Assembly (NCBI GenBank): GCA_010671905.1
Contig: JAAHII010000001.1
Coordinates: 7,030,026 to 7,094,025 of the forward strand
Origin: Leptolyngbya sp. SIOISBB
GTDB taxonomy: Bacteria; Cyanobacteriota; Cyanobacteriia; Phormidesmidales; Phormidesmidaceae
Length of the DNA: 64,000 bases
Direction: 5' to 3'
The notes under the pieces are model-generated. The model had not been told where the DNA came from and did no database searches. It worked only from the letters and a program-made list of their open reading frames with translations. Numbering within the stretch: the first letter of the stretch is position 1; every line of letters begins with the position of its first letter. Both the position numbers and the translations under genes were made by a program. Positions 19,659 through 59,914 of the stretch are shown here, piece by piece.

Positions 19659-21071
19659 ATGACGGTTGTCGCTGAGCCCCCTTTACCCAGAACTCTTGTT
19701 AAGCTCCATGATCGACTTACTAAAGGGGAATCCCCTAACTTGGTTGAAATGCAAATGGAACGTGCCGGGTGTGGAAAACAAGCCATGCTTGTAAGAACAA
19801 TTAATAATGATTCTAATAACAATAGAAAATATCAAGATGGAGACGTGTCTAGACCAGTAAGGAACACAAGCAAGGCAACCTTAAATAAATTCGTCCGTGG
19901 TTCAGAGGCTGTCTCCTACGAAATTGCTCGCCAATTTTGCGTCTATATTTGGCCTGATGAGTGGCGTCCAGAGCACTGGTATGAATGGCTGACGACTGAA
20001 GTTGACAAAAAAATTGAAACTGGAAAACCAAGTAACACCCCTCACAGTGGCGTTGTCAAATTTATTGGGCGTGAACCTGAGTTGGAGCAACTACATGCTC
20101 AGTTACAACAGAGTGGCCTGGTCGCTATTTCTGCGTTAGAAGGTATGGGAGGGGTTGGAAAAACAGAACTAGCAATTCAATACTCTCAAAGATACGCCTC
20201 ATTATACGAGGGAGGAATCTGTTGGTTACATGCCAGAGAATTTAATGTAGGTACACAGATAGTTGGTTTTACTCAATCCTACTTAAATCTTAAGATTCCG
20301 GAAGGCTTAGAATTTTCCACTCAAGTAGCTTTTTGTTGGCGTAACTGGGAAAAAGGTAATGTTCTTTTGGTGTTCGATGATGTGGTCAACTATAGACAAG
20401 ATGTTGAGCCCTATTTGCCTCCATCTTCATCTAGTAGATTTAAGGTTCTGATTACAACTAGATTGAAATTTGGCCCTCCTATTCAGTCAATTCCTTTAGA
20501 CATTTTTTCTCCTAGTCAGTCATTAGATTTATTGACAACTTTTATTGGCGAAGAACGAATTCAGCGAGAGCCGGATGTTGCTAGAACACTTTGTAAATGG
20601 CTAGGATATTTGCCTCTTGGCATTGAGTTGACGGGTCGATATTTAATTACACGTGATGACTTATCAATTTCTACATTATTATTTCGGTTACAAGAGAAGG
20701 CTAAAAAGCGAGAGGCTATCAAGCATAACGCACTTCAATTAGATGAAAAGATAGGGACGTCCACCGCTCGAAGAGGAGTGGAAGCTGCATTTGATTTAAG
20801 CTGGGATGAATTAGATGACCATAGTCGACATCTAGGTCAGCTGATGAGCTTATTTGCACAGGCACCCATCCCATGGAATTTAGCAGAGGAGACCGAGAAA
20901 AAATATTGTAATAATACTGAGATAAACAAGGAATTTGATATTGAAGAATTTGAAGATGCTAGAGCTAAATTAATAGATTTTCATCTTCTTAATATTTCTC
21001 AGCAGGAGGAGAATACATATCGCTTGCACCCTTTAATTCGAGAGTTTTTCAGGAGTAAATTAGAGGCATAA
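19659..21071 (+). CDS. NB-ARC STAND ATPase with N-terminal helix-turn-helix-like region
   Basis: This 470-residue NLR-type switch protein has an N-terminal region ending in a helix-turn-helix-like stretch (SKATLNKFVRGSEAVSYEIA, about residues 70-90) of the kind that begins many cyanobacterial NB-ARC proteins. The NB-ARC domain follows, with Walker A GMGGVGKT (162-169), Walker B VLLVFDDV (235-242), a sensor VLITTR (263-268) and LPLGIEL (GLPL motif, ~330). The protein ends in a winged-helix part (LHPLIREFFRSKLEA). The TPR gene begins one base after the stop. Such ATPases sense invaders and oligomerise. A single extra G at 21065-21066 could have split one NB-ARC-TPR protein into two. No toxic effector domain is visible. 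Confidence 0.85.
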   Translation: MTVVAEPPLPRTLVKLHDRLTKGESPNLVEMQMERAGCGKQAMLVRTINNDSNNNRKYQDGDVSRPVRNTSKATLNKFVRGSEAVSYEIARQFCVYIWPDEWRPEHWYEWLTTEVDKKIETGKPSNTPHSGVVKFIGREPELEQLHAQLQQSGLVAISALEGMGGVGKTELAIQYSQRYASLYEGGICWLHAREFNVGTQIVGFTQSYLNLKIPEGLEFSTQVAFCWRNWEKGNVLLVFDDVVNYRQDVEPYLPPSSSSRFKVLITTRLKFGPPIQSIPLDIFSPSQSLDLLTTFIGEERIQREPDVARTLCKWLGYLPLGIELTGRYLITRDDLSISTLLFRLQEKAKKREAIKHNALQLDEKIGTSTARRGVEAAFDLSWDELDDHSRHLGQLMSLFAQAPIPWNLAEETEKKYCNNTEINKEFDIEEFEDARAKLIDFHLLNISQQEENTYRLHPLIREFFRSKLEA

Positions 21072-21072
21072 A

Positions 21073-22558
21073 ATGACATCGAAAGCTAATATTGCTCAAA
21101 GCGTTGAAGCAAGACATTTAAAGAATGCTGTTTGCAGTGTCGTGGCAGATTTTGCCGAAAAGATACCAGCAAGATTTAACCAGCAAGACAAGCTGCGATT
21201 TTCTCCGGTAATACCACATATGGTAGAAGTTGCTGTTAAATTACAAGACTTCCTAGCTAATGATGAACTGGTCGTTCCTTATTTAGGCTTAGGAAGGTTT
21301 TATTATGGACAAGGAGCTTATGCCGAGGCGGAACCTTGGTTGACTCAATGTTGTTCAATAAGTCAAGATCGATTAGGAGATAATCACCTGGACGTAGCGG
21401 TCAGTCTCAATGAATTAGCGAACTTATATCTTGATCAGGGTCGCTTTAATGATGCTGAACTGCTTTATCAGAAAGCACTCGCAATTTCAAAGCGACTAGA
21501 TTCTGAGCATTACCGTAACGCAGAGTTTTTAAATAATTTAGGAACTCTATTTTTATTTAAGGGACAATATGCTGAAGCAGAAGCAACACTGTTAGATGCA
21601 TTGGAAATCCGCAAGCAACAGTTGGGACTAGATCACCTCGAAACAGCAGAAAGTCTTAACAACTTGGCAAATCTCTATAGTCAGCAAGCTCGATATGAAG
21701 AAGCGGAAAGCTTATCCCGTCAGGCTTTGGAGATCTATGAGAAATGTCTGGAAATTGATCACCCCGACGTAGCTACGAGTCTGAATAATCTAGGAGAAAT
21801 CTGCCGCTCAGCGGGGAAACTGGATGAGGCAAAAACACTTTTCGAGAGGGCGTTATCTATTAGAGAGAATCAATTAGGAAAAGAACATCCTCATGTAGCT
21901 TTGAGTTTCAATAATCTTGCGAATCTTCATTTTGGGAAAGGAAACTACAGTGAATCGGAACATTATTACCAGAAGTCTTTAGAGGCTTGGGAACAACAAC
22001 TAGGACCCGATCACCCTTATGTAGCTCTTGCTCTTCATAATCTTGCTACACTTTACTACACCCAGAAGAAATATGATGAATCTGAACCCAATTATCAAAA
22101 AAGCCATATTAATTTGGAAGCAGCATTTGGGAGAAAAGCATCAAGATGTTTTAGATGCACAAAGAGGTTTAGCCAATCTTTACCGAGATCAAGAGCGTTT
22201 CCTTGAATCGGAAAATCTCTATGGTCAGCTGCTGTTAGATTATGGGGAATTGCCAAACTCTGAAAATGACATTGCAATAACCCTCAATAATATGGGGCTA
22301 CTTTTCTTAAAAAAAAGCGAACATGAGAAGGCAGAAGAACACTTTAGAAGGGCTATAGAGATTTGGAAGAAATTATTTGGGAATACACATTTTTATGTGG
22401 GAAATGGATTGAAAAATCTAGCAATGGCGTATGCAGTGAGAAAAGACAATAAAACTGCTAAAAATTTGTATTTAGAAGCCTTGGAATACTTAGAGAATGG
22501 CCTTGGTAGTACACATCGTTGGACTGTTGATTGCAGGGAGAAATTAGAGCAGCTTTGA
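21073..22558 (+). CDS. TPR-repeat protein, partner of the NB-ARC ATPase (frameshifted)
   Basis: Ten or so tetratricopeptide repeats of the 42-residue kinesin-light-chain type are visible (for example LNNLANLYSQQARYEEAESL and LNNLGEICRSAGKLDEAKTL). TPR stacks act as the sensing arm of STAND proteins. The first frame ends at 22206 in unrelated residues. The repeats go on in another frame if one A is removed from the A6 run at 22097-22102 (YQKAILIWKQHLGEKHQDV), to a TGA at 22556-22558, giving 494 residues. The gene starts one base after the NB-ARC stop. In related cyanobacterial proteins the NB-ARC and TPR parts are usually one chain. Confidence 0.85.
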
Positions 22559-22849: not shown

Positions 22850-23993
22850 GTTTCCGTCCCCTTGCGGGGAATGGTTTAGGAAAGTGCTTTGAGTATTGAT
22901 GTTCAGTTTGAGAGGGTTGGTTGAGTTTCCGTCCCCTTGCGGGGAATGGTTTAGGAAAGTTTCGTGTCCATTAACGTACACTAGCCCCGTTTTTAAGCGG
23001 GTTTCCGTCCCCTTGCGGGGAATGGTTTAGGAAAGACGTATATTGAGGAAACTCATCATGGAAGATGGCGTGTTTCCGTCCCCTTGCGGGGAATGGTTTA
23101 GGAAAGAGGTGCTATGAAGGTTAGCTACAGCAATGAAATTTACTGTTTCCGTCCCCTTGCGGGGAATGGTTTAGGAAAGCTTGGTGGCCTTGAGGGTATC
23201 GATGCTGCTACTGGTGGTGTCTAGTTTCCGTCCCCTTGCGGGGAATGGTTTAGGAAAGTGATGTTACTGTGCCGCCGGAGCTATTAGCATATGTTAGTGT
23301 TTCCGTCCCCTTGCGGGGAATGGTTTAGGAAAGGTTGATTGGATAGACATTAAAAGTGAAGTTTCTTGTTTCCGTCCCCTTGCGGGGAATGTTTTAGGAA
23401 AGTTAGTACCTGTTAGACGGATGACACTAGGGACTGTACTAGAGTTTCCGTCCCCTTGCGGGGGAATGTTTTAGGAAAGGTGCGGGCTTCATTACTATAG
23501 AATATGATCAAGATGGAGTTTCCGTCCCCTTGCGGGGAATGTTTTAGGAAAGGTGCGGGCTTCATTACTATAGAATATGATCAAGATGGAGTTTCCGTCC
23601 CCTTGCGGGGAATGTTTTAGGAAAGACCCATGGGGTTGGAAGATCGCAAATATCGACTACAACAAGTTTCCGTCCCCTTGCGGGGAATGTTTTAGGAAAG
23701 TTGCGTGATTTTGAAGTAGTCTATCAAGTTAATCATGGTTTCCGTCCCCTTGCGGGGAATGTTTTAGGAAAGCGGTATTACTGGTTGGGCTGGGTGCGTT
23801 CGCACTTGGCTTGTTTCCGTCCCCTTGCGGGGAATGTTTTAGGAAAGGCTTTATGGAGATGGTTTCCATGATTCGTTTAGGGAAAAGTTTCCGTCCCCTT
23901 GCGGGGAATGTTTTAGGAAAGCCCTGATGATCCTTCGTTCATGGAGGAAAATCTAGGTGTTTCCGTCCCCTTGCGGGGAATGTTTTAGGAAAG
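22850..23993 (-). CRISPR. CRISPR array 1: 16 repeats, 15 spacers
   Basis: Repeats of 35 bases start at 22850, 22925, 23001, 23072, 23145, 23224, 23299, 23368, 23444, 23518, 23591, 23666, 23738, 23813, 23887 and 23959; spacers are 36-45 bases. On the plus strand each begins GTTTCCGTCCCCTTGCGGGG. On the minus strand the repeat ends CCCCGCAAGGGGACGGAAAC, which matches the 3' end of array 3 repeats, so transcription is minus-strand with the leader on the right. The first seven repeats (distal) read GAATGGTTTAGG; the nine leader-proximal ones read GAATGTTTTAGG. The repeat at 23444 has one extra G. Spacers at 23480-23517 and 23553-23590 are identical. Confidence 0.98.
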
Positions 23994-24184
23994 AGCGTTG
24001 TTCAGAACACCCCTTCTAAGCGGATTTCAACCCTGGCAATCTCCATAGGTCAGAAACAACATGAAAATCACTCATTGAAAATCCTGAAAATGGGCAACAT
24101 TGATAGCTGAAACCCTTTCAGGGCAAGCTATCTCCATAGGTTAACGAGATTATTAGGTTTTCAAGGATCCGCTGACCTCTGGAG
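23994..24184 (-). promoter_or_regulatory. Leader of CRISPR array 1
   Basis: This AT-rich stretch lies between the array and cas2. It contains ATCTCCATAGGT twice, at 24039-24050 and 24130-24141, 91 bases apart, and GGTTTTCAAGGATC at 24156-24169. The same layout, with the same spacing, is present beside array 2. Together with the repeat orientation this marks the leader end, where new spacers would be added. Confidence 0.7.
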
Positions 24185-24517
24185 TCAGTGTATTTGTACC
24201 CAAACTACCTTACATCGAAGATAAAATCGACAAACCAGCGTTAAATAATATAAAAAATCTGGAGGGGGTTCTGGTCGCTCACTCCCCAGTGTCAATGTTT
24301 TTGGCAACGCATCGGCGGCAATCCAATAAAATCGAACGTTGTCTTCCTTCACCTCGATACGTTCCTGCACTTTTTGGAAAAGCATTTTCATTTCACCTAA
24401 GTTCAGAAAGCACTCGAAGACACTTTTTTGCACACGCCGTCCATAGCCTTCTAAAAACGTCGCTAGTTTGGTACGACGTTTGTTGTCGGGAATATCGTAG
24501 GTCACCAACACCAGCAT
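24185..24517 (-). CDS. cas2: CRISPR adaptation protein Cas2
   Basis: This 110-residue protein begins MLVLVTYDIPDNKRRTKLA, the ferredoxin-like first strand of Cas2 with the conserved aspartate (D8). It continues through QKSVFECFLNLGEMKML and ends its core at GSERPEPPPDF. Cas2 forms the dimer that bridges two Cas1 dimers during spacer integration. Its ATG overlaps the stop of RT-cas1 by one base (TAATG), so the two are coupled. The C-terminus is about 17 residues longer than usual, with a hydrophobic, cysteine-containing tail (TLVCRFYLRCKVVWVQIH) after the usual PPPDF end. Confidence 0.93.
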   Translation of the reverse strand: MLVLVTYDIPDNKRRTKLATFLEGYGRRVQKSVFECFLNLGEMKMLFQKVQERIEVKEDNVRFYWIAADALPKTLTLGSERPEPPPDFLYYLTLVCRFYLRCKVVWVQIH

Positions 24518-26653
24518 TATTTCATCTTGCGGTAGGGCTTATAGGATGTTTTTTCGGTCAATGATTGTTTATACCGTCTAATCTGAAGCTGAATAACTCG
24601 ACGATAAGAGACAAGCGTTTTTATATCAGGATGGGAGACCTCTCGGGAAAGTCTTTTTTCAAACTGTACTAAAAATGGACGTTTTGCAGCTTCGTTTAAA
24701 TAAATTCCACCTTTAGCATTTGGCCAGGTAAAGTCTGTCGGTTTAAAGAACTTTTGATTGATAAGCCGCACCACCAAGCTATCCACAATCGGAGAGCGAA
24801 ACTCCTCCACTAAGTCAAACGCCAGAAAGGTTTGCTTTTTCTCCGAGCCGTGCAGATTTCCTAAATACGGATTTAAGCCTTCTGCAAATAGTAGGCTCAA
24901 CACGTTGTTAAAGAGCAACGTGTAGCCAAAGCTCAGTAATGAGTTGATCGGGTCTTTCGGTGGACGCCGATTCCTTTCTGTAAAGGTGAACGCGTCATTA
25001 ACAATGAGCTGTCCCAGTGCTTTGAAATATCGTGTGGCGGCACTGCCCTCATAGCCTCTGAGAACATTGAGCGATTCTGCCTGCTCTGCCCTGGCGATAT
25101 CTTCTGTGAGTCCGGCAATAGCTGCGGCCACAGCAGACATCTGCCGCTTACGATTGAGCCTTAACAGGAGCTGCTTTGAATTCATGAGTTTGCCCTGCAC
25201 GATCGCTCGCGCTGTTGCCAGCTTAAATGCCTCATCGGTTTGGCGCTGATATTGAGCCATCTCAACTCGAATATCATCGTATTCAGCACTCCAGAGATGG
25301 CCTTTGTAGTCGCCAAGCTGCGACATAAAAACAACCGGTACCTGATTTGCCAAACAGTCTGAGATCACCGCTGTGGTCAATTGGATGTTGCCGAATACGA
25401 GTAGACGCTCAACCTCTCGCGTGGGAATCTCTAACAGCTCTTCCTGGGGGGCTTTGACGAGATAACGTCCCTGCTCCTTTTTTACCGTTGCCCCTTGTTG
25501 CAGCAGATAAAGCGTAGACATGCCTGGCCTCCAGATGGGTTCGTTGGATTTAATTTCGATGGGTTTTTCCGATCTCACTCGATACCCCAGCACAACAAAT
25601 AGTGGGGGTGGGATAGGGCGCTGAGTCTGATCAATCGCCAGCTTGAGGGCCGAGTGCATTTGAGTGGGCGCTCGGATCGGTTCTGAGTGCACAATCTTGA
25701 GATCGGAGTCAGGGTGTTTGATGTTTGGTTTGGGAGGCGATCGCTTCTTGATCGGCACTACCAAATCGCCGACAAAGGCATGCCCCAAGAACCGAAACCC
25801 TTGATCAAAATGGGTGATTTGGGTTTTCTCAGGATGCAGTCTTAGGCCCATATCCGCCAGCCAGTCAGCAATTTGAGGGTGAATATCCACAATTTGCGTC
25901 TGGCGTCGCCCTAAGACCACAAAATCATCGCCATAGCGCACCAGCTTAAGGGGCGTATCCTGTAGCGCTTCATCAAAGTCATCTAAGTAGATATTGGCCA
26001 ATAGGGGCGAAACAACTGCTCCTTGGGGAATTCCCTCCTTCGGAAAGACGATGCCTTCCCGTGTCAGCACTCCAGCTGCAATCCATTGTTTGACTAAGTG
26101 CAACACGAGGGCATAAAAAGCTCGGTGCAAGGGGGAACTCTCCTGATCGGAGGGACTTTGCCAGCGATAGGGGCAGTCTTTCGGCCACTTCTGCCAACAG
26201 ACGATTGTGCCCCACGTGGTCGAAATATTTGATGATGTCTGCATCCAAGAGCCATTCGTACCCCCGGCGATGCCAGGCTGTGACTTGTTCAACGGCCATG
26301 CGGTGGGAGCGGCCCGGACGATAGGCAAAACTGCTGGTCTCAAACTGGGGCTCCATGAGGGGATGCAAAACATTGAGTAGGGCTTGCTGCACAATGCGAT
26401 CGCGCACGGCAGGCACTCGCAGCTCACGCCAACTATGGTCTTTTTTGGGGATAAAAATTTGCCGCAGCGGTAACGGACGGTAGGTGCCATTGGTCACCCG
26501 CTGGCGCAGTTGCTGCAGCTTGCGGTCTCGGTGTTGACCAAACTGACGGATGGTTTCGCCATCCACCCCAGCACACCCTTTGTTAGACGCCACCTTACGC
26601 CAAGCCGCCTCAAAGTTCTCAGCGGATAGAAACCGCTCAAGCTGCTGATTCAT
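24517..26653 (-). CDS. cas1: Reverse transcriptase-Cas1 fusion, frameshifted in the RT domain
   Basis: The N-terminal RT of the group II intron type has motif A-type LLDADIIKYFDHV, motif B-type GIPQGAVVSPLLANIYLD and catalytic YGDD (VRYGDDFVVL). The C-terminal Cas1 integrase has the conserved glutamate in YEGSAATRYF, histidine in GNLHGSEKKQ and acidic residues in LVEEFRSPIVDSL. RT-Cas1 acquires spacers from RNA. The frame breaks after HNRLLAEVAERL; deletion of one base in the G4 run at 26170-26173 (plus-strand numbering) restores a 711-residue protein through PYRWQSPSDQ to ALVLHLVKQWIAAGV. No Cas6 domain is fused. As read, both catalytic halves are in different frames, so the fusion would not be made. 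An operator-like box lies 44 bases upstream of the start. Confidence 0.92.
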
Positions 26654-26748: not shown

Positions 26749-27616
26749 CAGCGATCGTCCCCTTGCGGGGAATGGGTTGAGAAAGAAAGGCGAGAAAGGC
26801 TGGTTTGATTTACCACTTGGCACCCAGTTTCCATCCCCTTGCGGGGAATGGATTGAGAAAGTGTCTATGATCTAGCGACTAAGGCAGGCAATGACGGACG
26901 TGTTTCCGTCCCCTTGCGGGGAATGGGTTGAGAAAGGTTTAGAAGAGGTGATCGGTCATGATCACAATCACAAATCGTTTCCGTCCCCTTGCGGGGAATG
27001 GGTTGAGAAAGTCAGTGGTGGTTCTGCCGTTAATCGGAAGACTGAAATGGGAAGTTTCCGTCCCCTTGCGGGGAATTGGTTGGGAAAGTTTGTAAGCTCT
27101 AGTTTTCCCATGGAGGAAGGACTTATGGTAGTTTCCGTCCCCTTGCGGGGAATTGGTTGGGAAAGATTGCTATTTGGAACGGTTTACCTGATTGGGCGAA
27201 ATGGTTTCCATCCCCTTGCGGGGAATAGCTTGGGAAAGACGCCGAGATAATGGGGATTATGTTTTGATTGATGCTGGAGTGTTTCCATCCCCCCTTGCGG
27301 GGAATTGGTTGGGAAAGCATCGATATCAATATCGCAGAAGGCTGATAAGTGCGAAAGTTTCCATCCCCTTGCGGGGAATAGCTTGGGAAAGTACGGTTTG
27401 CGTGTCAGTTGCGTAAGGTTGCGTCGACATGGTTTTCGTCCCCTTGCGGGGAATGGGTTGAGAAATGTCACTGAAAGATCTACTGAAACGGAGATTGACT
27501 CTGCAGTTTCCGTCCCCTTGCGGGGAATGGGTTGAGAAAGAGCCCGTTGTCGGACAAGTTGTCACGGTTGATCCGTTCCAGGTTTCCGTCCCCTTGCGGG
27601 GAATGGGTTGAGAAAG
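26749..27616 (-). CRISPR. CRISPR array 2: 12 repeats, 11 spacers, repeats variable
   Basis: Repeats start at 26749, 26827, 26902, 26977, 27054, 27131, 27204, 27281, 27357, 27432, 27506 and 27582. On the plus strand they read GTTTCCGTCCCCTTGCGGGG followed by a variable tail: GAATGGGTTGAGAAAG, GAATTGGTTGGGAAAG or GAATAGCTTGGGAAAG. Several have CCATCC in place of CCGTCC. The leftmost repeat (26749) has lost its first six bases, as expected for the distal end of a minus-strand array. The repeat at 27281 carries two extra Cs and that at 27432 two substitutions. The array lies between RT-cas1 and the CARF membrane gene. Confidence 0.97.
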
Positions 27617-27861: not shown

Positions 27862-28704
27862 CTATCGAACCGCCTTGAGACGATAGGCCACCCTAATTTC
27901 GACAATTTGCCGCGATTCCCCGCGAGTCGTAATGTACTCTAGCCGTCGTTCAGGGCGAGTGCAGGCCAGAAAAGCCCCAACGCCCAACGGTTTAGTGCCC
28001 CCTGTGATATCCACAATTAAATCTGTTTCAGCGATGCCCAGTGAGTCAGCATGGCCATAAATTGCGTTCACCAGATGCAAAACATAATCAGGGTCGTAGA
28101 TGGTTTCGGGGCTGACCTTGAGTCGAAAAGGCTGGTCAGGCTGTTGGGGATTCGCCAGGACAAACTCGCCATAAAAGAGCGTCAGCCGTTCGCCAATGCC
28201 CTCCGCAATCAGCCGCTGCTCCAAACGACGAGCATAGTCCACCGATTCAGTGGTGCAGATAATCCAGCAGTACTCTAAACAGGGTAGACGTCCTTGATGC
28301 CAATGGTGACGAATGGCAAATTCTGCCGGTGAGTCCTCTTTGGGACTCATAATCACCACCAGTCCCCGACAGGTGTCTCGGAGTGGCACCACTTTGGCCG
28401 TATCTGGAATCACAGCATCCGCGAGGCCCACCTTAGTCATACCCCGTCGCACCCAATCGGTCAGGTTGGTGCCGTATATCAACAGCAGGGTCAACAGCAA
28501 CAAGCCAAACAGCACCCAAAACCGAAAAACCGCCAAACTCTGGATATTCAGGTTGGTTTGTAGCCAAGCCCCTAAATTCTCCCAAAACAGGTCGGAGACG
28601 CCACTGGAAAACAAATTCAGGAGCACGACCCCAATGATGAAGAAGGAGAGGAAATTTTTGGTCGGGTCGCTCAGCGCTTGAAGGATGGGATTACGGCGAG
28701 ACAT
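27862..28704 (-). CDS. Two-TM membrane protein with CARF-like domain (candidate cyclic-oligoadenylate effector)
   Basis: This 280-residue protein has two N-terminal TM helices (about residues 18-34 and 57-77) followed by a cytoplasmic Rossmann-like domain. The motif VDITGGTKPLGVGAF (residues 231-245) is the signature DxTGGTK of CARF and related cyclic-oligoadenylate sensors. Known membrane CARF proteins such as Cam1 open pores or perturb the membrane when ligand binds. This one has two helices rather than one. It lies next to the type III-A genes, separated by a MITE-like element. The C-terminus is a short basic tail with no nuclease motif. Membrane disruption as output is inference. Confidence 0.78.
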   Translation of the reverse strand: MSRRNPILQALSDPTKNFLSFFIIGVVLLNLFSSGVSDLFWENLGAWLQTNLNIQSLAVFRFWVLFGLLLLTLLLIYGTNLTDWVRRGMTKVGLADAVIPDTAKVVPLRDTCRGLVVIMSPKEDSPAEFAIRHHWHQGRLPCLEYCWIICTTESVDYARRLEQRLIAEGIGERLTLFYGEFVLANPQQPDQPFRLKVSPETIYDPDYVLHLVNAIYGHADSLGIAETDLIVDITGGTKPLGVGAFLACTRPERRLEYITTRGESRQIVEIRVAYRLKAVR

Positions 28705-29248: not shown

Positions 29249-30382
29249 TTATGCCTGGTAGGTTTTGGCTAAATGGATTGCGACGGTGTTGGTTTCGGCT
29301 CGGGTGCGGCCTGTGGTTTGGATGCAAATACCGTATCCAACATCGGTCCAGGTCAAGACAAATTCAATCAGGCCGTTGGGTTTGGCTCGGCGAATGGGAT
29401 GCAGGGCCTTGGGGTTAAATGGCAGCGAGTTGACAATAGCGGTGACATAGGGATATTGCCGGATTTTTTGGGCAAAGTCTTCTAAGACATCTTTGCCATG
29501 GTCATCTCGGAGCTTAATCGGCTTCTGGTCAGGAGGGGTCTCTACTTGGGGCACAAGACTGAGGAGCGTGGTCTCTTGTTTGGCAAACTGGAGGCGGCAG
29601 CGATTGTGAAAGAGTTGCCCCATGGCCGACAATGCCACATACGGAACGTCTTCACCGTCGGGGGATGCAAGACCAACTTCATCGATCATGGCCCCAACTG
29701 GGAGATCTTGCAGATCGTCTGCCACTTCAGATTTGGGGAGTTGCTGCTGTTGTTCTAATTCCTCAAACAGGCCGTAATGATTGAGCCACAGGTTCAGGTC
29801 TAGTGAAACGGGTTGCGGCGGCAGCTCAATCACCTTGGAAAATCGCTCAAACAGGTAATAAACCGGAATTTCAAAGGCTTGGCCAATCATGCCCGCAAAG
29901 GAGATTTGGGCTTTGTAGCCGCCTGTGGCGTTAATCGCGATACTTTCAGGTGATCGCTTTTGCACCTCAAGGCTGATCTCGCGCACTAGATTCTTCAGCC
30001 CCTCTTGCTGAAAGGTGGCAACACTTTGATCATTGAGGCCGGTTAACACCCGCGACGATTCAACTTGCTCAAACTGAAACGGGTTCGTGTTGTGACGATA
30101 GTATTGCTCAAGAAGTTGGCCAATCTTCTTGCCATCCGGGGTATCCGAAACCAAGAAGATCAGGCAAAGGCGTCGGTCTAAAATTCCTTCTTGGCAGATG
30201 CTAGCGATCGAATTGATTTCGGCTCCACACAGTCGCTCGCTGGGCTCTTTTTGTAGGAGGGCAAGGGCCACTGCTTTGAGATTTTCAGCGTCCCACGCCT
30301 GATATATCGGATCGTCTGGGGAAAGCCTGCTAAGGTTGCCCATCAAACTGGTGCCAACCGTGCAAATAAGAGTGTGTCTCAT
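29249..30382 (-). CDS. CARF protein with RelE-like C-terminal domain (type III effector)
   Basis: This 377-residue protein starts MRHTLICTVGTSLMGNL, the first strand and ligand loop of a CARF domain, and has a second CARF motif, NATGGYKAQISF (residues 151-162). This is the APE2256-like CARF family. The C-terminal ~90 residues (DVLEDFAQKIRQYPYVTAIV to the end) have the helix-helix-sheet pattern of RelE/ParE, which suggests ribosome-linked mRNA cleavage when cyclic oligoadenylate binds. No HEPN RxxxxH motif is visible, so it is not a classical Csm6. Its ATG overlaps the stop of cas6 by four bases, so it is part of the effector operon. The RelE assignment is from pattern only. Confidence 0.75.
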   Translation of the reverse strand: MRHTLICTVGTSLMGNLSRLSPDDPIYQAWDAENLKAVALALLQKEPSERLCGAEINSIASICQEGILDRRLCLIFLVSDTPDGKKIGQLLEQYYRHNTNPFQFEQVESSRVLTGLNDQSVATFQQEGLKNLVREISLEVQKRSPESIAINATGGYKAQISFAGMIGQAFEIPVYYLFERFSKVIELPPQPVSLDLNLWLNHYGLFEELEQQQQLPKSEVADDLQDLPVGAMIDEVGLASPDGEDVPYVALSAMGQLFHNRCRLQFAKQETTLLSLVPQVETPPDQKPIKLRDDHGKDVLEDFAQKIRQYPYVTAIVNSLPFNPKALHPIRRAKPNGLIEFVLTWTDVGYGICIQTTGRTRAETNTVAIHLAKTYQA

Positions 30383-31164
30383 GGGTCATTGGTGGGGTTA
30401 GAAGGGGATAAAAAAGTCGTCCGTCCCATGCCTAGTCGAGTCTTGGTTCCGGTCCCAGCCCAGGCCGCATAGTGTATGAGCAATTCAGCGACATTGGCCA
30501 AGAGCGGGTCAATGCGAGACAATATCCGCAGTGAGACGTTTCCCGTAAAACCACTGACGTAGTGCTTGTGGACAGGAAATGGCTGGGACTGAATACGGTG
30601 ACGAGTCAGGGCGATCGCTTCGCCTAGATACCCAATTAACTCATCGCCTCCCAAATAGACTGGGGCAAAGTGATTCCAGCGCTCTAGCCAACTGCGGAAC
30701 ATCAGCGGGGGGAGAGGTAACGGCAGATAGAGACGATTTTGCGAAAACGCGGTGGGCGTATCAAAGGTGAGATCAAACTGGCGCTTGGGTTCTGGCTCAG
30801 CTGCCACCTGTTCGTGATAGAGCGCCTCATAGCTACTGGTGCAATCTTGGCGATCGATAATTTGAAAGGTCGCGCCTAGACAAGACAGGTGTTCGCCCAG
30901 GTCTAGGGTAGCGATCGCCTTGGCAGACGACTCCTGCAAACCGGTCAGAGAAAGTTGATAAAACTCGCCAGGCTGAAACGTGACAAACTCCCGAGAGGCG
31001 GTGCGGGGACCAAGAATACCGGCAAAGGTTGTCGAGGGAATTGACTCGCTCCCCAGATCAATCGCAAGGCGTGAGTGTAGCGATTTCCCTAGCTCTAGCC
31101 CATAGGATTTAGGCACCGAAATCGCGGTGTCGGTAGTGAGCGTCCAGGTGGAGCGGATGAGCAT
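30379..31164 (-). CDS. cas6: CRISPR RNA endoribonuclease Cas6
   Basis: This 261-residue RAMP protein has two ferredoxin-like folds and a C-terminal glycine-rich loop, AGTGTKTRLGMGRT (about residues 238-251). FTGNVSLRIL and RSWLERWNHFAP are also typical of Cas6 in type III loci. Cas6 cuts the repeat RNA at the base of its stem to leave an 8-base 5' handle; the handle from all three arrays here would be (G)A-C/T-GGAAAC. It begins two bases after the csm5 stop and overlaps the CARF-RelE-like gene by four bases, so it is in the effector operon. It is clearly different from the cas6 next to array 3. Confidence 0.9.
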   Translation of the reverse strand: MLIRSTWTLTTDTAISVPKSYGLELGKSLHSRLAIDLGSESIPSTTFAGILGPRTASREFVTFQPGEFYQLSLTGLQESSAKAIATLDLGEHLSCLGATFQIIDRQDCTSSYEALYHEQVAAEPEPKRQFDLTFDTPTAFSQNRLYLPLPLPPLMFRSWLERWNHFAPVYLGGDELIGYLGEAIALTRHRIQSQPFPVHKHYVSGFTGNVSLRILSRIDPLLANVAELLIHYAAWAGTGTKTRLGMGRTTFLSPSNPTNDP

Positions 31165-31166
31165 GG

Positions 31167-32444
31167 TTAGATCGTCTCCAGTTTGACCCAGCCTGGGACG
31201 TAGCGGATTTCCCCTTGAGAATTCATGATTGTGCGGCGCGATTTTGGTGCTTCGAACCCTGGAGCGGCAATACCGCAGGTATCACGCACCTCTTTAATCA
31301 GCTCATCCGGCAGGCAGAGATTGACCGTAGTGCCTCTCAGCCCACTGCCCCAACCCAGGCGCAGCGTATGAGGACAAGTCTGAGGCTCATACAGATTGCG
31401 GATATGGTCAAAATCCAGATTCCGGCCTTGTGCTTCGGGGTTATTTTGTACGGCAGCCCAATAATCATGCTCAAAGTCCCACTGCTCTTGGGCAAACCCT
31501 TGGCAGATTTGCAGTAAATCCTCGACGGACTGAAAGGGCAACTTCATGCCCTTTTGATGGTGGAACCAGGACAGCATTTCGTGATCCACGCTGAGGGTAA
31601 ACTGGGTCCGCACGTTGAATGCCAGTTCGGCATAGATAGACGCCCGGTATTTGGCCCGATAGTCAGGAAAGCGACTGGAGACAATCACCTCATTGACCAC
31701 CGACAAATTTCTGAAAAGTGGTCGTTTCCCTTCCCGCTGTATTCTTTCCTCAATTAGAGGCGCTGAGTCTGAGACGCTGACGGCTCTCATAATATCGGTG
31801 TTTGGGCCTTGGCGGGTTCTGGCGTTTCTGCCTTGGTAGGTTAAGCCGTAATTTGAGAAGAGCTCATCCATAAACAACCGATCATCGGCAAATTTAGCCT
31901 TCCGCCGCAGGTCTCCCATGGATTGTCGCAGCCGATCTTCGATCGCGCTCACTCGATTAGCTTTCGGCACTCGATAGGTGTCAGCATGTTTCAACAGGTG
32001 ATAGGCGATCGCCGTGCGGATGGCCCCCTTGATAGATGAGCCGGGAATGTAATGATGCCCAAAGCCATTGCGAATCATCGGTCGCAGATCGGTAATGCGC
32101 TGAGTCGTCCATTTCAAGCTGCGTTGCGTCTTGGGAAAAATGGCGGCACCATCTTCGTCTTGGGCAGTCCACCATTTATCACCCAGGGTCTTTTCCAGCA
32201 ACGTACTAATATCTTCTCGGTCTTTGATGCGGTGGATATAGTCATTAAGGGCACCCCGCTGGCGCAAGGTTTGGGCTAGAGACTCCTGATCAGGCAAATA
32301 GACAAATTTTCCGGCCTGCACATACTCAAACGGATTTAATCGCGACACCGACGAGCCGATGTGCAGGATCTGGCTGGTTAAGCGAATCTGCTGGGTTTCG
32401 CAAACATCTGGTTTGGTCAGGGATTGACTAGGAGCAATGACCAT
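31167..32444 (-). CDS. csm5: Type III-A effector subunit Csm5
   Basis: This 425-residue RAMP protein caps the 3' end of the crRNA in the Csm complex. It shows the RAMP loop IPGSSIKGAIRTAIAY near residues 132-148 and a late glycine-rich stretch, RLGWGSGLRGTTVNL, near 370. Size and position after csm4 match Csm5. It begins 13 bases downstream of csm4. There is no sign of truncation. Confidence 0.9.
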   Translation of the reverse strand: MVIAPSQSLTKPDVCETQQIRLTSQILHIGSSVSRLNPFEYVQAGKFVYLPDQESLAQTLRQRGALNDYIHRIKDREDISTLLEKTLGDKWWTAQDEDGAAIFPKTQRSLKWTTQRITDLRPMIRNGFGHHYIPGSSIKGAIRTAIAYHLLKHADTYRVPKANRVSAIEDRLRQSMGDLRRKAKFADDRLFMDELFSNYGLTYQGRNARTRQGPNTDIMRAVSVSDSAPLIEERIQREGKRPLFRNLSVVNEVIVSSRFPDYRAKYRASIYAELAFNVRTQFTLSVDHEMLSWFHHQKGMKLPFQSVEDLLQICQGFAQEQWDFEHDYWAAVQNNPEAQGRNLDFDHIRNLYEPQTCPHTLRLGWGSGLRGTTVNLCLPDELIKEVRDTCGIAAPGFEAPKSRRTIMNSQGEIRYVPGWVKLETI

Positions 32445-32457
32445 AATGATGGATAGA

Positions 32458-33579
32458 TTAAGACGACAAACTGACGGGTAGGCTCAGGGCAACCCCATTG
32501 CGATAGATGGCATGGGGCACCCGACGCCCATCTGCTTGAATGAACTCTGGAGGCGTGACATCCGCCAGTTGTCCCCTAGGTTCTTTGGGAAACACTGAAC
32601 CTTCGGCAAACATGCGGATCATTTGACGGCGCAGCTGCCGACCAGAAAAAGGTGATGCAATCCAGCCGCCTCGTTCCTGGAGGGTATATCTTGCACTGTC
32701 ACCTAACCAAGCTAAATCAATGGCATCATCCCAAAAGAGACTCACCAGGCTGTGGTGATTGCCTCCCGTAAAGGACACAATCTCGTTCCAGTCTTTAGGC
32801 AACGCCTCCCAGGACAGGATGGTAAAGCGACCGGCTCCGCTGGATCGTTCCCCCCCTAACCCTTCCTCTCCCAGGATGGCCAGGGCTTGCATCAAATCGG
32901 TTTCCAGTTCCGCAGCCGCGTCTGGAAACTGGATCAGGAAATACAGGCCAGCTAGATTTTTAACCCCCTCATGCCCCCACGGGGCCGTGCCTTTTCCAGG
33001 CTGCCAGGCAAACTGGATCAGCCCCGTGTGATAAAAATTAGTGGCGCGAGTGGTGCGATCGATCGCTACTTTGGGCAACTCATAGCCCTTGAACGCCTCT
33101 GCATAGTCGAAACAGCCTGCCTGGGCCAGGGCTGTGGACTTATCTGCAGGTTCCGCCGTGTAGGTCTCTAAATCTTGGGCATCCTGAAGCGTAAAACCGC
33201 TTCCCTGATACCAACGCTGCCACACCTCTTTAGGCAAATACTTCAGTTTCTTGAAGGTTTTAGCAAAGCGGAGATCATCACTCATGTAGCCTGGGGGCCG
33301 TTCAACCAACTTGGGCAAGTAGTCGATAAACGTCTCCCCCAGTCGTCGGTAAACAAAGGTGGAGCTAACCCGAAACAGGGGCTCAGCCGTGTTGGTAAAC
33401 TGCTCCAGTAGAGCTTCTACCCTGGCTTTTCCAAAACTTTTAGCGTAGGCGCTGATCCAGGCACTGAATAGGGTGTCTGATCGCACTCGCTCAGACTTCT
33501 GTTCTAAGCCGATACCAGTTTCACCAAAGTGGGTAGGGTTGCGCCCAAAATTCAAGCGCACGAGTTTCCAGTTACTCAT
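32458..33579 (-). CDS. csm4: Type III-A effector subunit Csm4
   Basis: This 373-residue Cas5-like RAMP protein recognises the 5' handle of crRNA. It has the family opening NWKLVRLNFGRNPTHFGETG, then RVRSDTLFSAWI, and the glycine-rich loop GGERSSGAGRFT near residue 250. The start at 33579 is chosen because it overlaps the csm3 stop in ATGAGTAA and follows AAGGAAG; an upstream ATG at 33627 would lie deep inside csm3. It is the usual partner of Cas10. Confidence 0.9.
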   Translation of the reverse strand: MSNWKLVRLNFGRNPTHFGETGIGLEQKSERVRSDTLFSAWISAYAKSFGKARVEALLEQFTNTAEPLFRVSSTFVYRRLGETFIDYLPKLVERPPGYMSDDLRFAKTFKKLKYLPKEVWQRWYQGSGFTLQDAQDLETYTAEPADKSTALAQAGCFDYAEAFKGYELPKVAIDRTTRATNFYHTGLIQFAWQPGKGTAPWGHEGVKNLAGLYFLIQFPDAAAELETDLMQALAILGEEGLGGERSSGAGRFTILSWEALPKDWNEIVSFTGGNHHSLVSLFWDDAIDLAWLGDSARYTLQERGGWIASPFSGRQLRRQMIRMFAEGSVFPKEPRGQLADVTPPEFIQADGRRVPHAIYRNGVALSLPVSLSS

Positions 33580-34561
33580 CGCTTCCTTGGGAATCGCTAC
33601 CGGGCAAGAGTCTCTGCTGAACTGCATTGGTCAGTTCACTAAACTGCTGGAGCAGCACGGACGTGTTGTCCATTTCCGCAATCGGATCTAAAAAGCTCGT
33701 GGCACCAGTCGTGACCTGGCGATATTGATCTACCCCGCGATAAAAGAATCGAAAGTTCTCAAACCGAATCTTGCCGTAACCCCGAGAACCGTGGCCGCCC
33801 AGAGCATCATCTTCCAGAATGGCGAGGGCGATCGCGAGATTTTTCAAATCCTCTCCAGCCTGTTCAATCTCTTCAACGGTGTAGACCATTTCAAAATCAA
33901 ACTTGGCTCCGGCTGGAACCCGCTCTAACTGTCTGGGATTAGCTGCTGACGTGATGCGATCGATGCCGTTTTCAAACTTCCACTCTGTCATGTAGAGGCC
34001 CGTGTCAATTTTGGCCAGCTGCTTTGCGGAATCCGGTTGCAAATGAGCATCTCTTACCAGCAGTCGGCTCGGTGCATTCCGACCTTTGATGCGAGTATGT
34101 TGAACATTCTCAATTTCCTGGGTTCGAGCATCGCGAGGGGCGAGTTTCTCAGCTTGTGCGATCGCGGACGGAATCCAGCACTTTGAACCGCCCGTTGAAC
34201 CAAACACTCGACTAACAGAGCAAGTTGCCGCCCCCTCAAAACGAACGTATTGTCCGTCGCCAATCTCGGTGTAGCCATCAACCAAGTCATCGCTCTCATA
34301 GCGATAGGTGCCGCTTCCCCCGGCCCGATTAAGGGGCTTATTGAGCAAGCGTTCTAGCGTAGAACGCAGCTTGCCTTTAATCGAAGAACCCGGCAGATAG
34401 GGCTGCTGAGTCACCGGATCTCGAATAACTGACTTATCGAGTCCACCAATGTCGAGGGTTTCACCGCCTCCACCAATGTGCAGCCCGGTCTCTACAACTA
34501 ACGTGCTGACAATCCGCAGTTTGCCCAGCAATGCTTTTTGAGGTCTCTCCACAACAGTCAT
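33572..34561 (-). CDS. csm3: Type III-A backbone and target-RNA nuclease Csm3
   Basis: This 329-residue protein is longer than typical Csm3 (about 220-260) because of a C-terminal extension and inserts. It has GLHIGGGGETLDIGGLD (residues 26-42). The final aspartate (D42) aligns with the catalytic D32 of S. epidermidis Csm3, which cuts target RNA every six bases. The RAMP loop LPGSSIKGKLRSTLE follows. Multiple copies form the helical backbone. It lies two bases after the frame-corrected csm2 stop and overlaps csm4. Confidence 0.93.
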   Translation of the reverse strand: MTVVERPQKALLGKLRIVSTLVVETGLHIGGGGETLDIGGLDKSVIRDPVTQQPYLPGSSIKGKLRSTLERLLNKPLNRAGGSGTYRYESDDLVDGYTEIGDGQYVRFEGAATCSVSRVFGSTGGSKCWIPSAIAQAEKLAPRDARTQEIENVQHTRIKGRNAPSRLLVRDAHLQPDSAKQLAKIDTGLYMTEWKFENGIDRITSAANPRQLERVPAGAKFDFEMVYTVEEIEQAGEDLKNLAIALAILEDDALGGHGSRGYGKIRFENFRFFYRGVDQYRQVTTGATSFLDPIAEMDNTSVLLQQFSELTNAVQQRLLPGSDSQGSDE

Positions 34562-34563
34562 AC

Positions 34564-35077
34564 TTATCGGCCTCCCTCGGCTTTGTGGTAAGCAATGATG
34601 GATTCAATCAGTTGAACCAAACGTTCAAAAATCTTTGAGGCTATGAACTTTATCAATCGCTGCTGACATAACGTCGCTCAGGGGTTTAGCCGCATCTTGC
34701 CTGGCAGCAGCATAGGCAAGTTTGGGTTTCAAGAGGACGATATCAGTCTCAATTTCGGCAAACTGCACAGTCTCTTCTTTCGGGCTGCTTTCTTCAGAAT
34801 CTCCCTGTGCTAACTGGGCTTTTAAGCGATTAACCGCATCTAGGAATTTACGAATTTGATTGGTTTCTAATCGGCGCTTCCGCAAGAAAGGGCCAAAGTC
34901 TTGGGCGTGTTCCACCAACGTGCGAATGTTGTAGTCCTGCAAATAATCCAATTCATTGATGGCCTCAATAATCTGTTTGCTGATGTTTCTACCCTGATCT
35001 TTCCTGGAGTGATCTCTTTTAGGGTGATCTTTTCTAGGGGACTGGTTATTGGGTTTATGAGGAGGTCTAGCGTTCAT
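34564..35077 (-). CDS. csm2: Type III-A small subunit Csm2, frameshifted near its end
   Basis: This mostly helical protein starts with a basic, disordered tail (NARPPHKPNNQSPRKDHPKR) followed by the Csm2 helical core. The frame stops early at 34625 after VHSLKDF. Deletion of one base from the A5 run at 34627-34631 (plus strand) continues it as DFERLVQLIESIIAYHKAE and ends at TAA 34564-34566, two bases before csm3, giving 170 residues. It overlaps the end of cas10 by 11 bases. The last helix contacts neighbouring subunits in other Csm2 proteins, so the short form may be impaired. Confidence 0.88.
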
Positions 35078-37460
35078 TGTTGTGTCTGTTGTTTGGAATT
35101 CCAGCAGTTGAACGATTTAGCAACTCTAGCCATGTTGCGATCGCGCGGAAATACGGCGCATTGTATGGGCTTTTCAAGGACTGTCTAACGGCATCAAATC
35201 CCTCCGTATTTTTGACTGCAACAGGCACCCTCGCTAAGGTATAAGCCACTCTAGGAAGATGGAGAAAATAGCGGATAGCTTTTTCCTGCTGAGATTGCTC
35301 TTCCTGGGCTTTTTTAGTCCATTGCTCCTGTAGTTGAGCTGTCGAAAGAAGATTTTGAATAAAGCTGCGAGAATATCGGGTGCCGAGCGTATCTCTTAAC
35401 TGATGTACAAACGGAAAGATGCCAAATAAAGCTAAGGCGGTATCCTCACCAATGTACTCTTTTGTTTCTGAAGGAATGGCTGAGAGACTGAAAGCACTTT
35501 GGTCGTAGTTACCTAGCCATTCCTCCCACTTAAAGACTTGATTAAATAGCCCAAGGCTATCTCGTCCATTCCCCTTAGCCGCAGTTTCCGCTGCGCCAGA
35601 ATCATCAGCAGATTGATAAAGCGGATACTTTGGTCCACTGAGACTAATGCCACCAGATAGGGTGATATCAGGATGCCAGCCAGTAAAGGCGCGGAAGCTT
35701 TGATAGATATCAAAGGCCAACTCCACCACCTGATTCCACGCCCCACTCACAAACAGATCGTCGCCTCCAGCATAGATAAAGAGCAGATCTTGGCGGTCTT
35801 CTGAGGTGAGGCTGCGAAATTCCGGTTGCGGCTGTTGTTTCTGCTCTTTTACGTGGTCAAGAAAGTCGCGCTGTCTAAACTCGGCGAGACTGTTGAGATA
35901 CACCTTGAAAAAGTAGCTCATCTGACGTGAAAGCCCTGAGAGTCTCGACAACGTGTAGTGCTCTCCAAGACCATTGACAAAAATTTGACCTAGCTTGTCC
36001 ACATCCATCCGGAGGTAGCCCACTCGTTTAATGCCGCTACCTTGATTGGCCATTTCCTGAGCAGTCATAAACGTCTCACGGGCCTCTTCACTTTCCTGGC
36101 TTTCTTGACCGTAGTTGCCCAATAGTAAAGGCGTTGGATTTTCAAAATGGGAGAACTTGTAAAGGTCTAAATCCCAGTTGTTGATGAGATAGACAGCGGC
36201 AGGCTCCTGAGGAATGGCCTTGGCACCTCTAAACAAGTGATAGTAAATCGGGGTTTCCCCAACCTCCATTTTGATCGAGTCTAAAGCATGGCTATCTGGG
36301 GAGGGCGATCGCACTAAGGCCCCCACTTTGAAAAGATGCCTACCAAGCTCAAACATTCTGTTACAGGTCGAGCAAGCATCTACGCCGTCTCCGCCTAGTG
36401 GTTTCAGGGTACGGACATCATCTCGATGGCAGACCTTGCAAGGCTCATGGGCTGGCCGAATTGACAAGACATCTGACAGTTGATTGTCAAATTTTCGACT
36501 TTTCTGAATCGCTAGATCCTTAATAGCGCGTTCCCAATGCTCGGCAAAGGCTTTGTCACTAATATCTGTTTTCGGAAAAGCGGGACTTGCAGTGAGGCCC
36601 AGGAAAACCTTTTCTTGAAATTCCTTGAATAGCCACTGATTGAATCGATCGCGAATAGCCTTGACCGTCTGATCAACAGACTGAATCGCGGGAGCCAAGA
36701 GATAGAGGTTACCGCCTCCGGCATAAATCACGTTAGAACGAGGTAACCCTAACCCCAGCAGCAATTGTTGAACAATTTCCTCGGTTACCAGCTCTAACGT
36801 AAAACTACGAGCCCGCAAAGACTTCAGCGCCCCATCAGAAGAAATCGTATAGATAAAGTCTTGAATTCCAGAAAGATCCCCCGCAACCAGACATAGTTCC
36901 TGAGTGTTGGGATTTAAGGCCAAGGCAACTGCCACAGAGGCCGCAGTTTTAACCAGGTCAAAAAAGGCGAGGTCTGGCTCCCCGAAACTGATGTAAGAAC
37001 CATACTTTTCTAACAGCAACATCAGCAAAGACAACTCTTGCCAGTCCTGAGTGGTCAGCTTTTCTAAAGCGGCTTTCACCTCCTCTTTCAAGGCTTGGAG
37101 TTGTTCTGCAGCAGGCTCCTGTGGTGAGGGATAAGGAATTTTAGGGTAGTGCTTTCGAGAGTCACGGGGGTTTTCAGTATTCTCGATCGCCCAAGCTGGC
37201 CAATAGTGAACGGCATCCTGCCCTTGGTCTAACTCGATGACATCAAAAACCAATCTCAGAGGACGGATGGCATCGCTAGGAAGGTTATGGGAGTTCGACA
37301 ATGGCCATTTCACCAGGGTTTTGGCCTCGGCAATGGAGTCCTGTCCGACTTGCTCCGTTTCGGTCAGTGAATAAGCCATGGCGGCTCCAGACCATTCACC
37401 GAAGATCAGCAGAGCTTCTTGGAAAACGTTGAGGGCAATTTGATGGGATAAAGCAGTCAT
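35067..37460 (-). CDS. csm1: Cas10/Csm1, cyclic-oligoadenylate synthase, no visible HD motif
   Basis: This 797-residue large subunit of the type III-A complex has a second palm domain with the catalytic FIYAGGDDLFVSG (near residues 563-575). The first palm is degenerate (VIYAGGGNLYLLAP). A C-x-x-C pair, CKVC...CSTC, near 345-370 forms the zinc ribbon between them. The N-terminal part (MTALSHQIALNVFQEALLIFGEW) lacks the HD dyad of DNase-active Cas10 proteins. It should therefore make cyclic oligoadenylates but not cut DNA. The ATG at 37460 is chosen because upstream residues are cysteine-rich and unlike the family. It is 70 bases downstream of csx3. Confidence 0.93.
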   Translation of the reverse strand: MTALSHQIALNVFQEALLIFGEWSGAAMAYSLTETEQVGQDSIAEAKTLVKWPLSNSHNLPSDAIRPLRLVFDVIELDQGQDAVHYWPAWAIENTENPRDSRKHYPKIPYPSPQEPAAEQLQALKEEVKAALEKLTTQDWQELSLLMLLLEKYGSYISFGEPDLAFFDLVKTAASVAVALALNPNTQELCLVAGDLSGIQDFIYTISSDGALKSLRARSFTLELVTEEIVQQLLLGLGLPRSNVIYAGGGNLYLLAPAIQSVDQTVKAIRDRFNQWLFKEFQEKVFLGLTASPAFPKTDISDKAFAEHWERAIKDLAIQKSRKFDNQLSDVLSIRPAHEPCKVCHRDDVRTLKPLGGDGVDACSTCNRMFELGRHLFKVGALVRSPSPDSHALDSIKMEVGETPIYYHLFRGAKAIPQEPAAVYLINNWDLDLYKFSHFENPTPLLLGNYGQESQESEEARETFMTAQEMANQGSGIKRVGYLRMDVDKLGQIFVNGLGEHYTLSRLSGLSRQMSYFFKVYLNSLAEFRQRDFLDHVKEQKQQPQPEFRSLTSEDRQDLLFIYAGGDDLFVSGAWNQVVELAFDIYQSFRAFTGWHPDITLSGGISLSGPKYPLYQSADDSGAAETAAKGNGRDSLGLFNQVFKWEEWLGNYDQSAFSLSAIPSETKEYIGEDTALALFGIFPFVHQLRDTLGTRYSRSFIQNLLSTAQLQEQWTKKAQEEQSQQEKAIRYFLHLPRVAYTLARVPVAVKNTEGFDAVRQSLKSPYNAPYFRAIATWLELLNRSTAGIPNNRHNNER

Positions 37461-37530
37461 GATAAAGCGATTGACTCTTTTCCTGAATACAACATGCAAA
37501 TGGAGTGAAAAGTTGATGGGGAAGGCTGGC

Positions 37531-38478: not shown

Positions 38479-38504
38479 CAGAACGTTCCCAGCATACACT
38501 GGGG

Positions 38505-38524: not shown

Positions 38525-38526
38525 TG

Positions 38527-59793: not shown

Positions 59794-59914
59794 CGATCGC
59801 AACGTTGCCTTGATGAATGCCCCCACAGAACCTTGAAAAACTGTAGCGATAATGACTACAGATACGCTGCCTTCTTTGATATCAAACGAAAATCAATGAT
59901 CTTTTCAACAGGGA

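What the first reader, a model, noticed from the sequence alone, without database searches (positions are those of the whole stretch)
24517..26653. RT-Cas1 broken by one base in a G4 run
Both halves match RT and Cas1 well and catalytic residues are kept, yet the frame changes at 26170-26173. If real, RNA-derived spacer uptake has stopped in this strain or needs ribosomal frameshifting; if an error, the gene is normal.
Basis: seen in the sequence. Interest (0 to 1): 0.6.

Follow-up and report, generated by a model that had tools for sequence, protein, structure and literature searches.

The report
CRISPR gene break, probably sequencing error
A cyanobacterial CRISPR gene of a kind that can store fragments of RNA as immune memory looks cut in two by a shift of reading frame, but the same assembly overcounts runs of identical bases in many other places, so the cut is most likely a sequencing error rather than biology.

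Summary
The frame change is really in the sequence. RT motif A lies in one ORF (26653-25979, minus strand); RT motif C and all of Cas1 lie in another (26490-24517). The gene belongs to a complete type III-A locus. The exact base is not fixed: the frame changes inside an unconserved insert in the RT (about 26185-26125). The G4 run at 26170-26173 is one good candidate.

It is best explained as an assembly artefact. A coding-frame scan finds 20 breaks in 1.2 Mb of this genome plus 2 in the window (RT-Cas1 itself and one other), against 0 in 780 kb of two related genomes; +1 prevails, and half of the breaks lie near runs of five or more. CRISPR repeats give a ruler: in this window 7 of 122 G4/C4 runs are too long and none too short, against 0 of 242 in two other genomes.

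RNA-spacer uptake need not have stopped: another RT-Cas1, on contig C2, is uninterrupted. Real RT loss remains possible: some relatives have damaged RTs, a third RT-Cas1 here has a nonsense codon, and RT frameshifts in RT-Cas1 are in print. Conserved programmed frameshifting is not supported. Raw reads would settle it.

The parts
25979..26653 (-). first ORF: N-terminal half of the RT of RT-Cas1 (with motif A), then about 60 residues out of frame
   Evidence: RVT_1 1-93/205, E 2.6e-13; P0001
24517..26490 (-). second ORF, one base ahead in frame: from about 26130 down it is the C-terminal half of the RT (motifs B and C = YGDD) and the whole of Cas1
   Evidence: RVT_1 100-204 E 9.8e-20; Cas_Cas1 1-283/283 E 9.7e-88
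26125..26185 (-). interval in which the frame changes; unconserved lineage-specific insert between RT motifs A and B
   Evidence: alignment with L049/L050; coding-potential weights
26170..26173 (-).
   Evidence: 43% of weight at 26177-26165; a five-base run lies at 26131-26135
24185..24517 (-). Cas2, intact
   Evidence: CRISPR_Cas2 E 8.4e-22
27862..28704 (-). CARF-transmembrane protein
   Evidence: PADLOC CARF8--CARF_TM E 3e-83
29249..30382 (-). CARF-DUF2103 (Csm6-like) protein
   Evidence: PADLOC E 2.9e-127
30379..34561 (-). Cas6, Csm5, Csm4, Csm3
   Evidence: PADLOC
34625..37571 (-). Csm2 and Cas10 (subtype III-A)
   Evidence: PADLOC Csm2 E 7.6e-20, Cas10a E 1.1e-93
22850..23993 (+). CRISPR array, 16 repeats; the repeat whose core is at 23450 has G5 instead of G4
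26750..27616 (+). CRISPR array, 12 repeats with many substitutions; the repeat whose core is at 27287 has C6 instead of C4
40502..42890 (+). CRISPR array, 33 otherwise identical repeats; run-length gains in the repeats starting at 41438, 42408, 42562 and 42637
21064..22558 (+). TPR gene split over two frames near an A6 run: another frame break (seen by eye and at the loosest scan setting only)
59900..61235 (+). acetamidase/formamidase gene split over two frames near a G7 run: another frame break
   Evidence: strict scan; FmdA_AmdA 11-259 and 284-372 of 373 in the two frames

Best explanation
The cell most likely carries an ordinary, uninterrupted RT-Cas1 fusion that works with Cas2 to load spacers, from RNA and DNA, into the adjoining type III-A arrays. 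The break is a base-count error of the assembly in or near a short G/C run inside a variable, unconserved insert of the RT. Shown: the frame change, the openness of the rest of the gene, and a genome-wide excess of the same kind of lesion. Inferred: that this particular lesion is an error, and that the protein works as its relatives do.
For: (1) Strict coding-frame scan: 20 breaks in 1.2 Mb of this genome and 2 in the window (one of the two is RT-Cas1 itself), against 0 in 400 kb (G006) and 0 in 380 kb (G206); +1 exceeds -1 by 14:6 in the sample. Sensitivity, by simulated +1 changes in G/C runs: 52 of 202 (G000), 29 of 187 (G006), 51 of 174 (G206). (2) Of 26 breaks (24 + 2, looser setting), 13 have a run of 5 or more within 20 bases against 14.8% of 2255 control positions, and 8 a run of 6 or more against 3.6%; nonsense-like junctions are 0 in 1.264 Mb, although the same measures flag two stops elsewhere in the genome. 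(3) Five broken genes were run against Pfam: in three one domain continues across the two frames (ATP-grasp_5, FmdA_AmdA, SBP_bac_3; the second SBP_bac_3 piece is below Pfam's cut-off) and TPR repeats continue in a fourth. (4) CRISPR repeats as a ruler: 2 of 56 G4/C4 runs too long in the arrays beside RT-Cas1, 5 of 66 in the third array, whose 33 repeats show no substitution. Over the seven arrays fetched of this genome whose repeats hold such runs, 10 of 265 are too long and 0 too short, against 0 of 242 in L135 (G203) and L116 (G206) (Fisher P 0.002, entered there as 10 of 264; window alone 7 of 122, P 0.0004). (5) RT-Cas1 has 16 G/C runs of 4 or more; the scan rate divided by its sensitivity gives about 0.14 expected breaks in a gene this long.
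Against: No reads were available, so nothing proves this base wrong. The scan candidates were not all verified one by one, and only two genomes served as controls. Run-length gains are uneven: one array of this genome (L070) shows 0 of 60, and another (L074) keeps all 109 A4 runs. The C6 lies in an array whose repeats also carry substitutions, so it may be real drift. At the loosest scan setting the contrast is only about twofold (20 in 400 kb against 9 and 9). The long-read error paper I looked into ties deletions, more than insertions, to homopolymers (PMC12007338, passages), whereas here gains prevail. A further RT-Cas1 of this genome has a nonsense codon in its RT, and RT damage occurs in relatives.
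Confidence: 0.78

Rival explanations
1. The break is real and recent: the RT is dead, while Cas1 (with or without the C-terminal half of the RT) is still made by internal initiation and, with Cas2, takes spacers from DNA only.
For: Of 36 distinct related cas1 loci, 5 have the RT truncated or partly deleted (L003, L007, L012, L051, L069; Cas1 is matched whole only in L003 and L051), 4 have frame changes in the RT, 2 have RT and Cas1 in different frames, and 5 show no RT in the DNA held. A further RT-Cas1 here has an in-frame TAA in the RT (L073:3076). PMC6753606 (passages) reports RT frameshifts in RT-Cas1 of Drancourtella and three E. rectale strains. [quoted passage not shown] An in-frame TTG at 26130 follows an AGGAG.
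Against: The lesion type is the one in excess in this assembly and in its CRISPR repeats; no second lesion of frame is seen in the gene. The 4 related frame changes are all in draft assemblies, so they may be errors too.
Confidence: 0.17
2. The full-length protein is made by ribosomal +1 frameshifting at the CCC-C site.
For: The direction needed is +1 and a C4 run sits in the interval. That CCC-C is slippage-prone is recalled, not tested.
Against: L049 and L050 have no C4 there and are in one frame; 19 of 36 distinct loci are uninterrupted fusions. The papers library gave no paper with 'programmed frameshift', 'CRISPR-associated' and 'cas1' together.
Confidence: 0.03
3. The RT is truly split into two polypeptides that assemble into a working enzyme, the break being tolerated because it falls in a loop between motifs A and B.
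For: The break lies in a length-variable insert, and a start with a Shine-Dalgarno-like AGGAG exists just after it (TTG 26130).
Against: Among the loci surveyed none was seen split at this place with both halves retained; L051 keeps only the second half. Motifs A and C would have to meet in trans; nothing here tests this.
Confidence: 0.02

Closest known systems
RT-Cas1 fusions of cyanobacterial CRISPR systems (RT-CRISPR clades 3 and 5 of PMC5541045; 'branch 5' of PMC5513706; passages read)
   Same: RT followed by Cas1, next to Cas2, in a Csm-type locus; nearest intact homologues found L049 and L050 (72 and 70% over the second ORF)
   Different: as printed it is in two frames; it carries an insert between motifs A and B, shared in position but not in sequence with L049/L050. 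Which published clade it belongs to was not tested.
[quoted passage not shown] An57 (PMC6753606, passages read)
   Same: frame change in the RT part of an RT-Cas1 gene
   Different: type VI-A systems of other bacteria; here the assembly has an independent excess of frame breaks
Homopolymer indel errors in long-read assemblies (PMC12007338, passages read)
   Same: frame breaks clustered at homopolymers that fragment genes
   Different: the passages tie deletions above all to homopolymers; here gains prevail (14:6 in the scan; 10:0 in repeats). The technology behind this assembly is unknown to me.

Membership tests
RT-Cas1 fusion | group II intron-like RT domain | tested here: met
   RVT_1 1-93 and 100-204 in the two ORFs; PADLOC RT E 9.2e-57 and 1.7e-35; group II intron maturase RT 6me0 E 8.5e-18
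RT-Cas1 fusion | complete Cas1 domain | tested here: met
   Cas_Cas1 1-283/283
RT-Cas1 fusion | RT and Cas1 in one open frame | tested here: inconclusive
   the C-terminal RT half and Cas1 share a frame; the N-terminal RT half does not, as printed
RT-Cas1 fusion | RT catalytic motifs present | tested here: met
   DAD in ORF 1, YGDD in ORF 2, by eye in translation and alignment
RT-Cas1 fusion | acquires spacers from RNA | not testable with these tools
   needs experiment
type III-A CRISPR-Cas | Cas10/Csm1, Csm2-5, Cas6 and CRISPR arrays | tested here: met
programmed-frameshift gene | frame change and slippery site conserved in relatives | tested here: not met
   L049 and L050 in one frame without the C4 run; 19 of 36 distinct loci uninterrupted
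assembly homopolymer error | excess of the same lesion elsewhere in the assembly but not in other genomes | tested here: met
   two control genomes for the scan, two for the repeats
assembly homopolymer error | raw reads disagree with the consensus | not testable with these tools
   no reads held

The most novel reading that the evidence does not exclude
The break is real: this lineage is shedding reverse transcription from its RT-Cas1 proteins (frame break here, nonsense in L073) while keeping Cas1, so that an RNA-memory system is turning into a DNA-memory one inside one genome, with an intact RT-Cas1 left on the smaller contig C2.
Probability: 0.13. Interest if true: 0.45.

Novelty: not a real feature. 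Interest (0 to 1): 0.15.

Why it matters
It keeps a probable base-count error from being read as loss of RNA-derived immunity. It also shows a cheap internal check: CRISPR repeats are one sequence printed many times over in an assembly, so run-length differences among otherwise identical repeats estimate the homopolymer error rate without any reads. If the break were real, the locus would be one of several suggesting that the RT half of RT-Cas1 is expendable while Cas1 is kept.

Tried and rejected
Programmed frameshifting: rejected as a conserved feature. Change fixed to the G4 run: not provable, because the insert is unconserved. A longer insertion unique to this strain: considered when the first alignment, without close relatives, showed about 18 extra residues; dropped when L049 and L050 turned out to carry a longer insert at the same place. 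Spacer origin: array 22840-24050 gave no match in phage records. Near-identical DNA of 20000-44000 in plasmid records: none; a protein search there found relatives below 60% identity in 100 records, of which I used none. Literature: 'RT-Cas1' + 'cyanobacteria' + 'frameshift' gave no paper; 'RT-Cas1' + 'frameshift' gave three, of which I looked into two: one reports RT frameshifts, in the other the word concerns phage escape. Homopolymer length spectra of the stretches did not separate the genomes clearly.

Rows dropped before counts: in the locus survey, L039 (no Cas1 match), and L063 and L060 as duplicates of L035 and L033 (same match ranges and identities); 39 loci examined, 36 counted: 19 uninterrupted, 4 with a frame change in the RT, 2 with RT and Cas1 in different frames, 5 with the RT truncated or partly deleted, 1 (L064) with an insertion near the start of Cas1 and the RT only partly in view, 5 with no RT seen. 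Of the 19, two (L034, L065) end inside Cas1; of the 5 without RT, two (L008, L009) have only 644 and 233 bases upstream. The survey covers loci fetched, not all matches, and two of them (L011, L066) also show a frame change within Cas1. Frame scans used 60 stretches of 20 kb of G000 (1.2 of 8.3 Mb) plus the window, 20 of G006 and 19 of G206. A first scan, trained with the window included, gave 5 in 464 kb against 0 and 0; later settings are. In the draft of this report L064 was counted with the damaged RTs; corrected without change of odds.

Full report
What is in the sequence. On the minus strand an RT-Cas1 gene occupies 26653-24517. Its first ORF (26653-25979) matches RVT_1 positions 1-93; its second (26490-24517), one base ahead, matches RVT_1 100-204 and the whole Cas_Cas1 model. 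The two RT matches are consecutive parts of one profile, so the gene has changed frame. Motif A is in the first piece, YGDD and Cas1 in the second. Cas2 follows at 24517-24185. Upstream on the same strand stand CARF-TM, CARF-DUF2103, Cas6, Csm5, Csm4, Csm3, Csm2 and Cas10: a full type III-A locus with arrays at 22850-23993 and 26750-27616.

Where the frame changes. In the relatives aligned (10, 16, some in both) most RT-Cas1 have only a few residues between ...ERL and the next conserved stretch. The two nearest intact relatives found, L049 and L050 (72 and 70% over the second ORF), have about 25-28 residues there, not alignable with the window's. The window also has an insert there, and the frame changes within it. 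Both frames are open across it, so alignment cannot fix the base. An order-4 coding model gives 43% of the weight to 26177-26165, which holds the C4 run, 32% to 26165-26141, under 4% to 26141-26108, and most of the remaining fifth to positions just above 26177. [quoted passage not shown] that this insert lies in RT3a is my inference from its place between motifs A and B.

Is it an isolated lesion? No. I scanned for places where coding potential passes from one frame to another on the same strand. At strict thresholds there are 20 in 1.2 Mb of this genome (60 stretches), 2 in the window (RT-Cas1 itself and an acetamidase gene), 0 in 400 kb of G006 and 0 in 380 kb of G206. Looser thresholds give 24, 2, 1 and 1. 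In one search, with 400 kb of this genome, the middle setting gives 11 plus 2 in the window against 2 and 3, and the loosest 20 plus 6 against 9 and 9. Simulated single-base gains are detected in 52 of 202 (G000), 29 of 187 (G006) and 51 of 174 (G206) cases, so the real density here is about four times the count. Net +1 changes outnumber -1 by 14 to 6. Of 26 breaks (looser setting, window included), 13 have a run of five or more within 20 bases (control 14.8%) and 8 a run of six or more (control 3.6%). Stops interrupting one frame number 0 in the same 1.264 Mb, although the same measures flag two such stops in other stretches of the genome. The candidates were not all verified. Five broken genes were run against Pfam: in three the same domain continues over the two frames (ATP-grasp_5, FmdA_AmdA and SBP_bac_3, the last with a weak second piece), TPR repeats continue in a fourth, and the fifth (a kinase) gives different domains in the two frames. 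Two of the five lie in this window: the acetamidase gene at 60.8 kb, and a TPR gene at 22.1 kb that the scan shows only at its loosest setting.

A ruler inside the assembly. CRISPR repeats of one array should have the same run lengths. In the two arrays beside RT-Cas1, 28 repeats hold 56 C4/G4 runs: one G5 and one C6 occur, none is shorter; the C6 lies in the array whose repeats also carry substitutions. In the third array (40502-42890), 33 repeats hold 66 such runs: five are one base longer, in four repeats; otherwise the 33 copies have no substitution. Other arrays of this genome give 0 of 60 (L070), and 2 of 40, 1 of 23 and 0 of 20 (L071). In all, 10 of 265 are too long and 0 too short, against 0 of 196 in L135 (G203) and 0 of 46 in L116 (G206). 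A further array of this genome, L074, keeps all 109 A4 runs. A variant repeat made by mutation would be expected to be copied to later neighbours and to occur along with substitutions (array growth, recalled); run-length gains alone look like base-count error.

Weighing. RT-Cas1 has 16 G/C runs of four or more. From the scan rate and its sensitivity about 0.14 breaks are expected in a gene of 2.1 kb, so one artefact here is unremarkable. Against this stands the chance of a real lesion. Of 36 distinct loci with a related cas1, 19 are uninterrupted fusions, 4 have a frame change in the RT (all in drafts), 2 have RT and Cas1 in different frames, 5 have the RT truncated or partly deleted (Cas1 matched whole in two of these), 1 has an insertion near the start of Cas1, and 5 show no RT in the DNA held. 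A further RT-Cas1 of this same genome (L073) has an in-frame TAA in its RT with Cas1 open. PMC6753606 reports RT frameshifts in RT-Cas1 of Drancourtella and of three E. rectale strains. So real RT loss is possible, and I give it about one in six. PMC11014452 speaks of spacers acquired from DNA by a Marinomonas RT-Cas1 lacking the RT domain (passages), which is what an RT-dead protein here might do.

Consequences. Even a real break would not by itself end RNA-derived uptake in the strain: another RT-Cas1 (L070, contig C2) is uninterrupted over RT and Cas1, though its activity is untested. Conserved programmed frameshifting is not supported. The finding is best filed as an ordinary RT-Cas1 of a type III-A system in an assembly with base-count errors.

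Noticed in passing
L073:3076 (G000:C1, about 3.091 Mb): A further RT-Cas1 of this genome has an in-frame TAA in the RT while the rest of the RT and Cas1 stay open (563 aa); nonsense-like junctions were 0 in 1.264 Mb sampled elsewhere, so this one may be a real mutation.
   Followed up: partly
L003, L007, L012, L051, L069: Related loci in which the RT is truncated or partly deleted; Cas1 is matched whole in L003 and L051, and lacks its start in L007, L012 and L069. In L051 the RT is lost up to the insert where the window's frame changes.
   Followed up: partly
L064 (G059:C1): An insertion of about 1.1 kb separates the first 30 or so residues of the Cas1 part from the rest.
   Followed up: no
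window 21064-22558 and 59900-61235: Two more frame breaks in the window, in a TPR gene near an A6 run and an acetamidase gene near a G7 run.
   Followed up: yes
window 23461-23606: A spacer-repeat unit of 73 bases is duplicated exactly, next to the repeat with a G5 run.
   Followed up: no
window 37531-38586: Csx3-AAA fusion (PADLOC E 2.2e-95) beside Cas10, with an HTH-WYL regulator gene on the other strand (38413-39981); the ORFs as listed overlap.
   Followed up: no
window 42929-44101: A second Cas6 with a C-terminal HTH domain (PADLOC HTH E 3.6e-21), next to the 33-repeat array.
   Followed up: no
L071 (G000:C2:243000-262000): A remnant Cas1 (62% identity, query residues 479-655) with no RT or N-terminal Cas1 part found at that threshold, in a stretch with three CRISPR arrays.
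   Followed up: no
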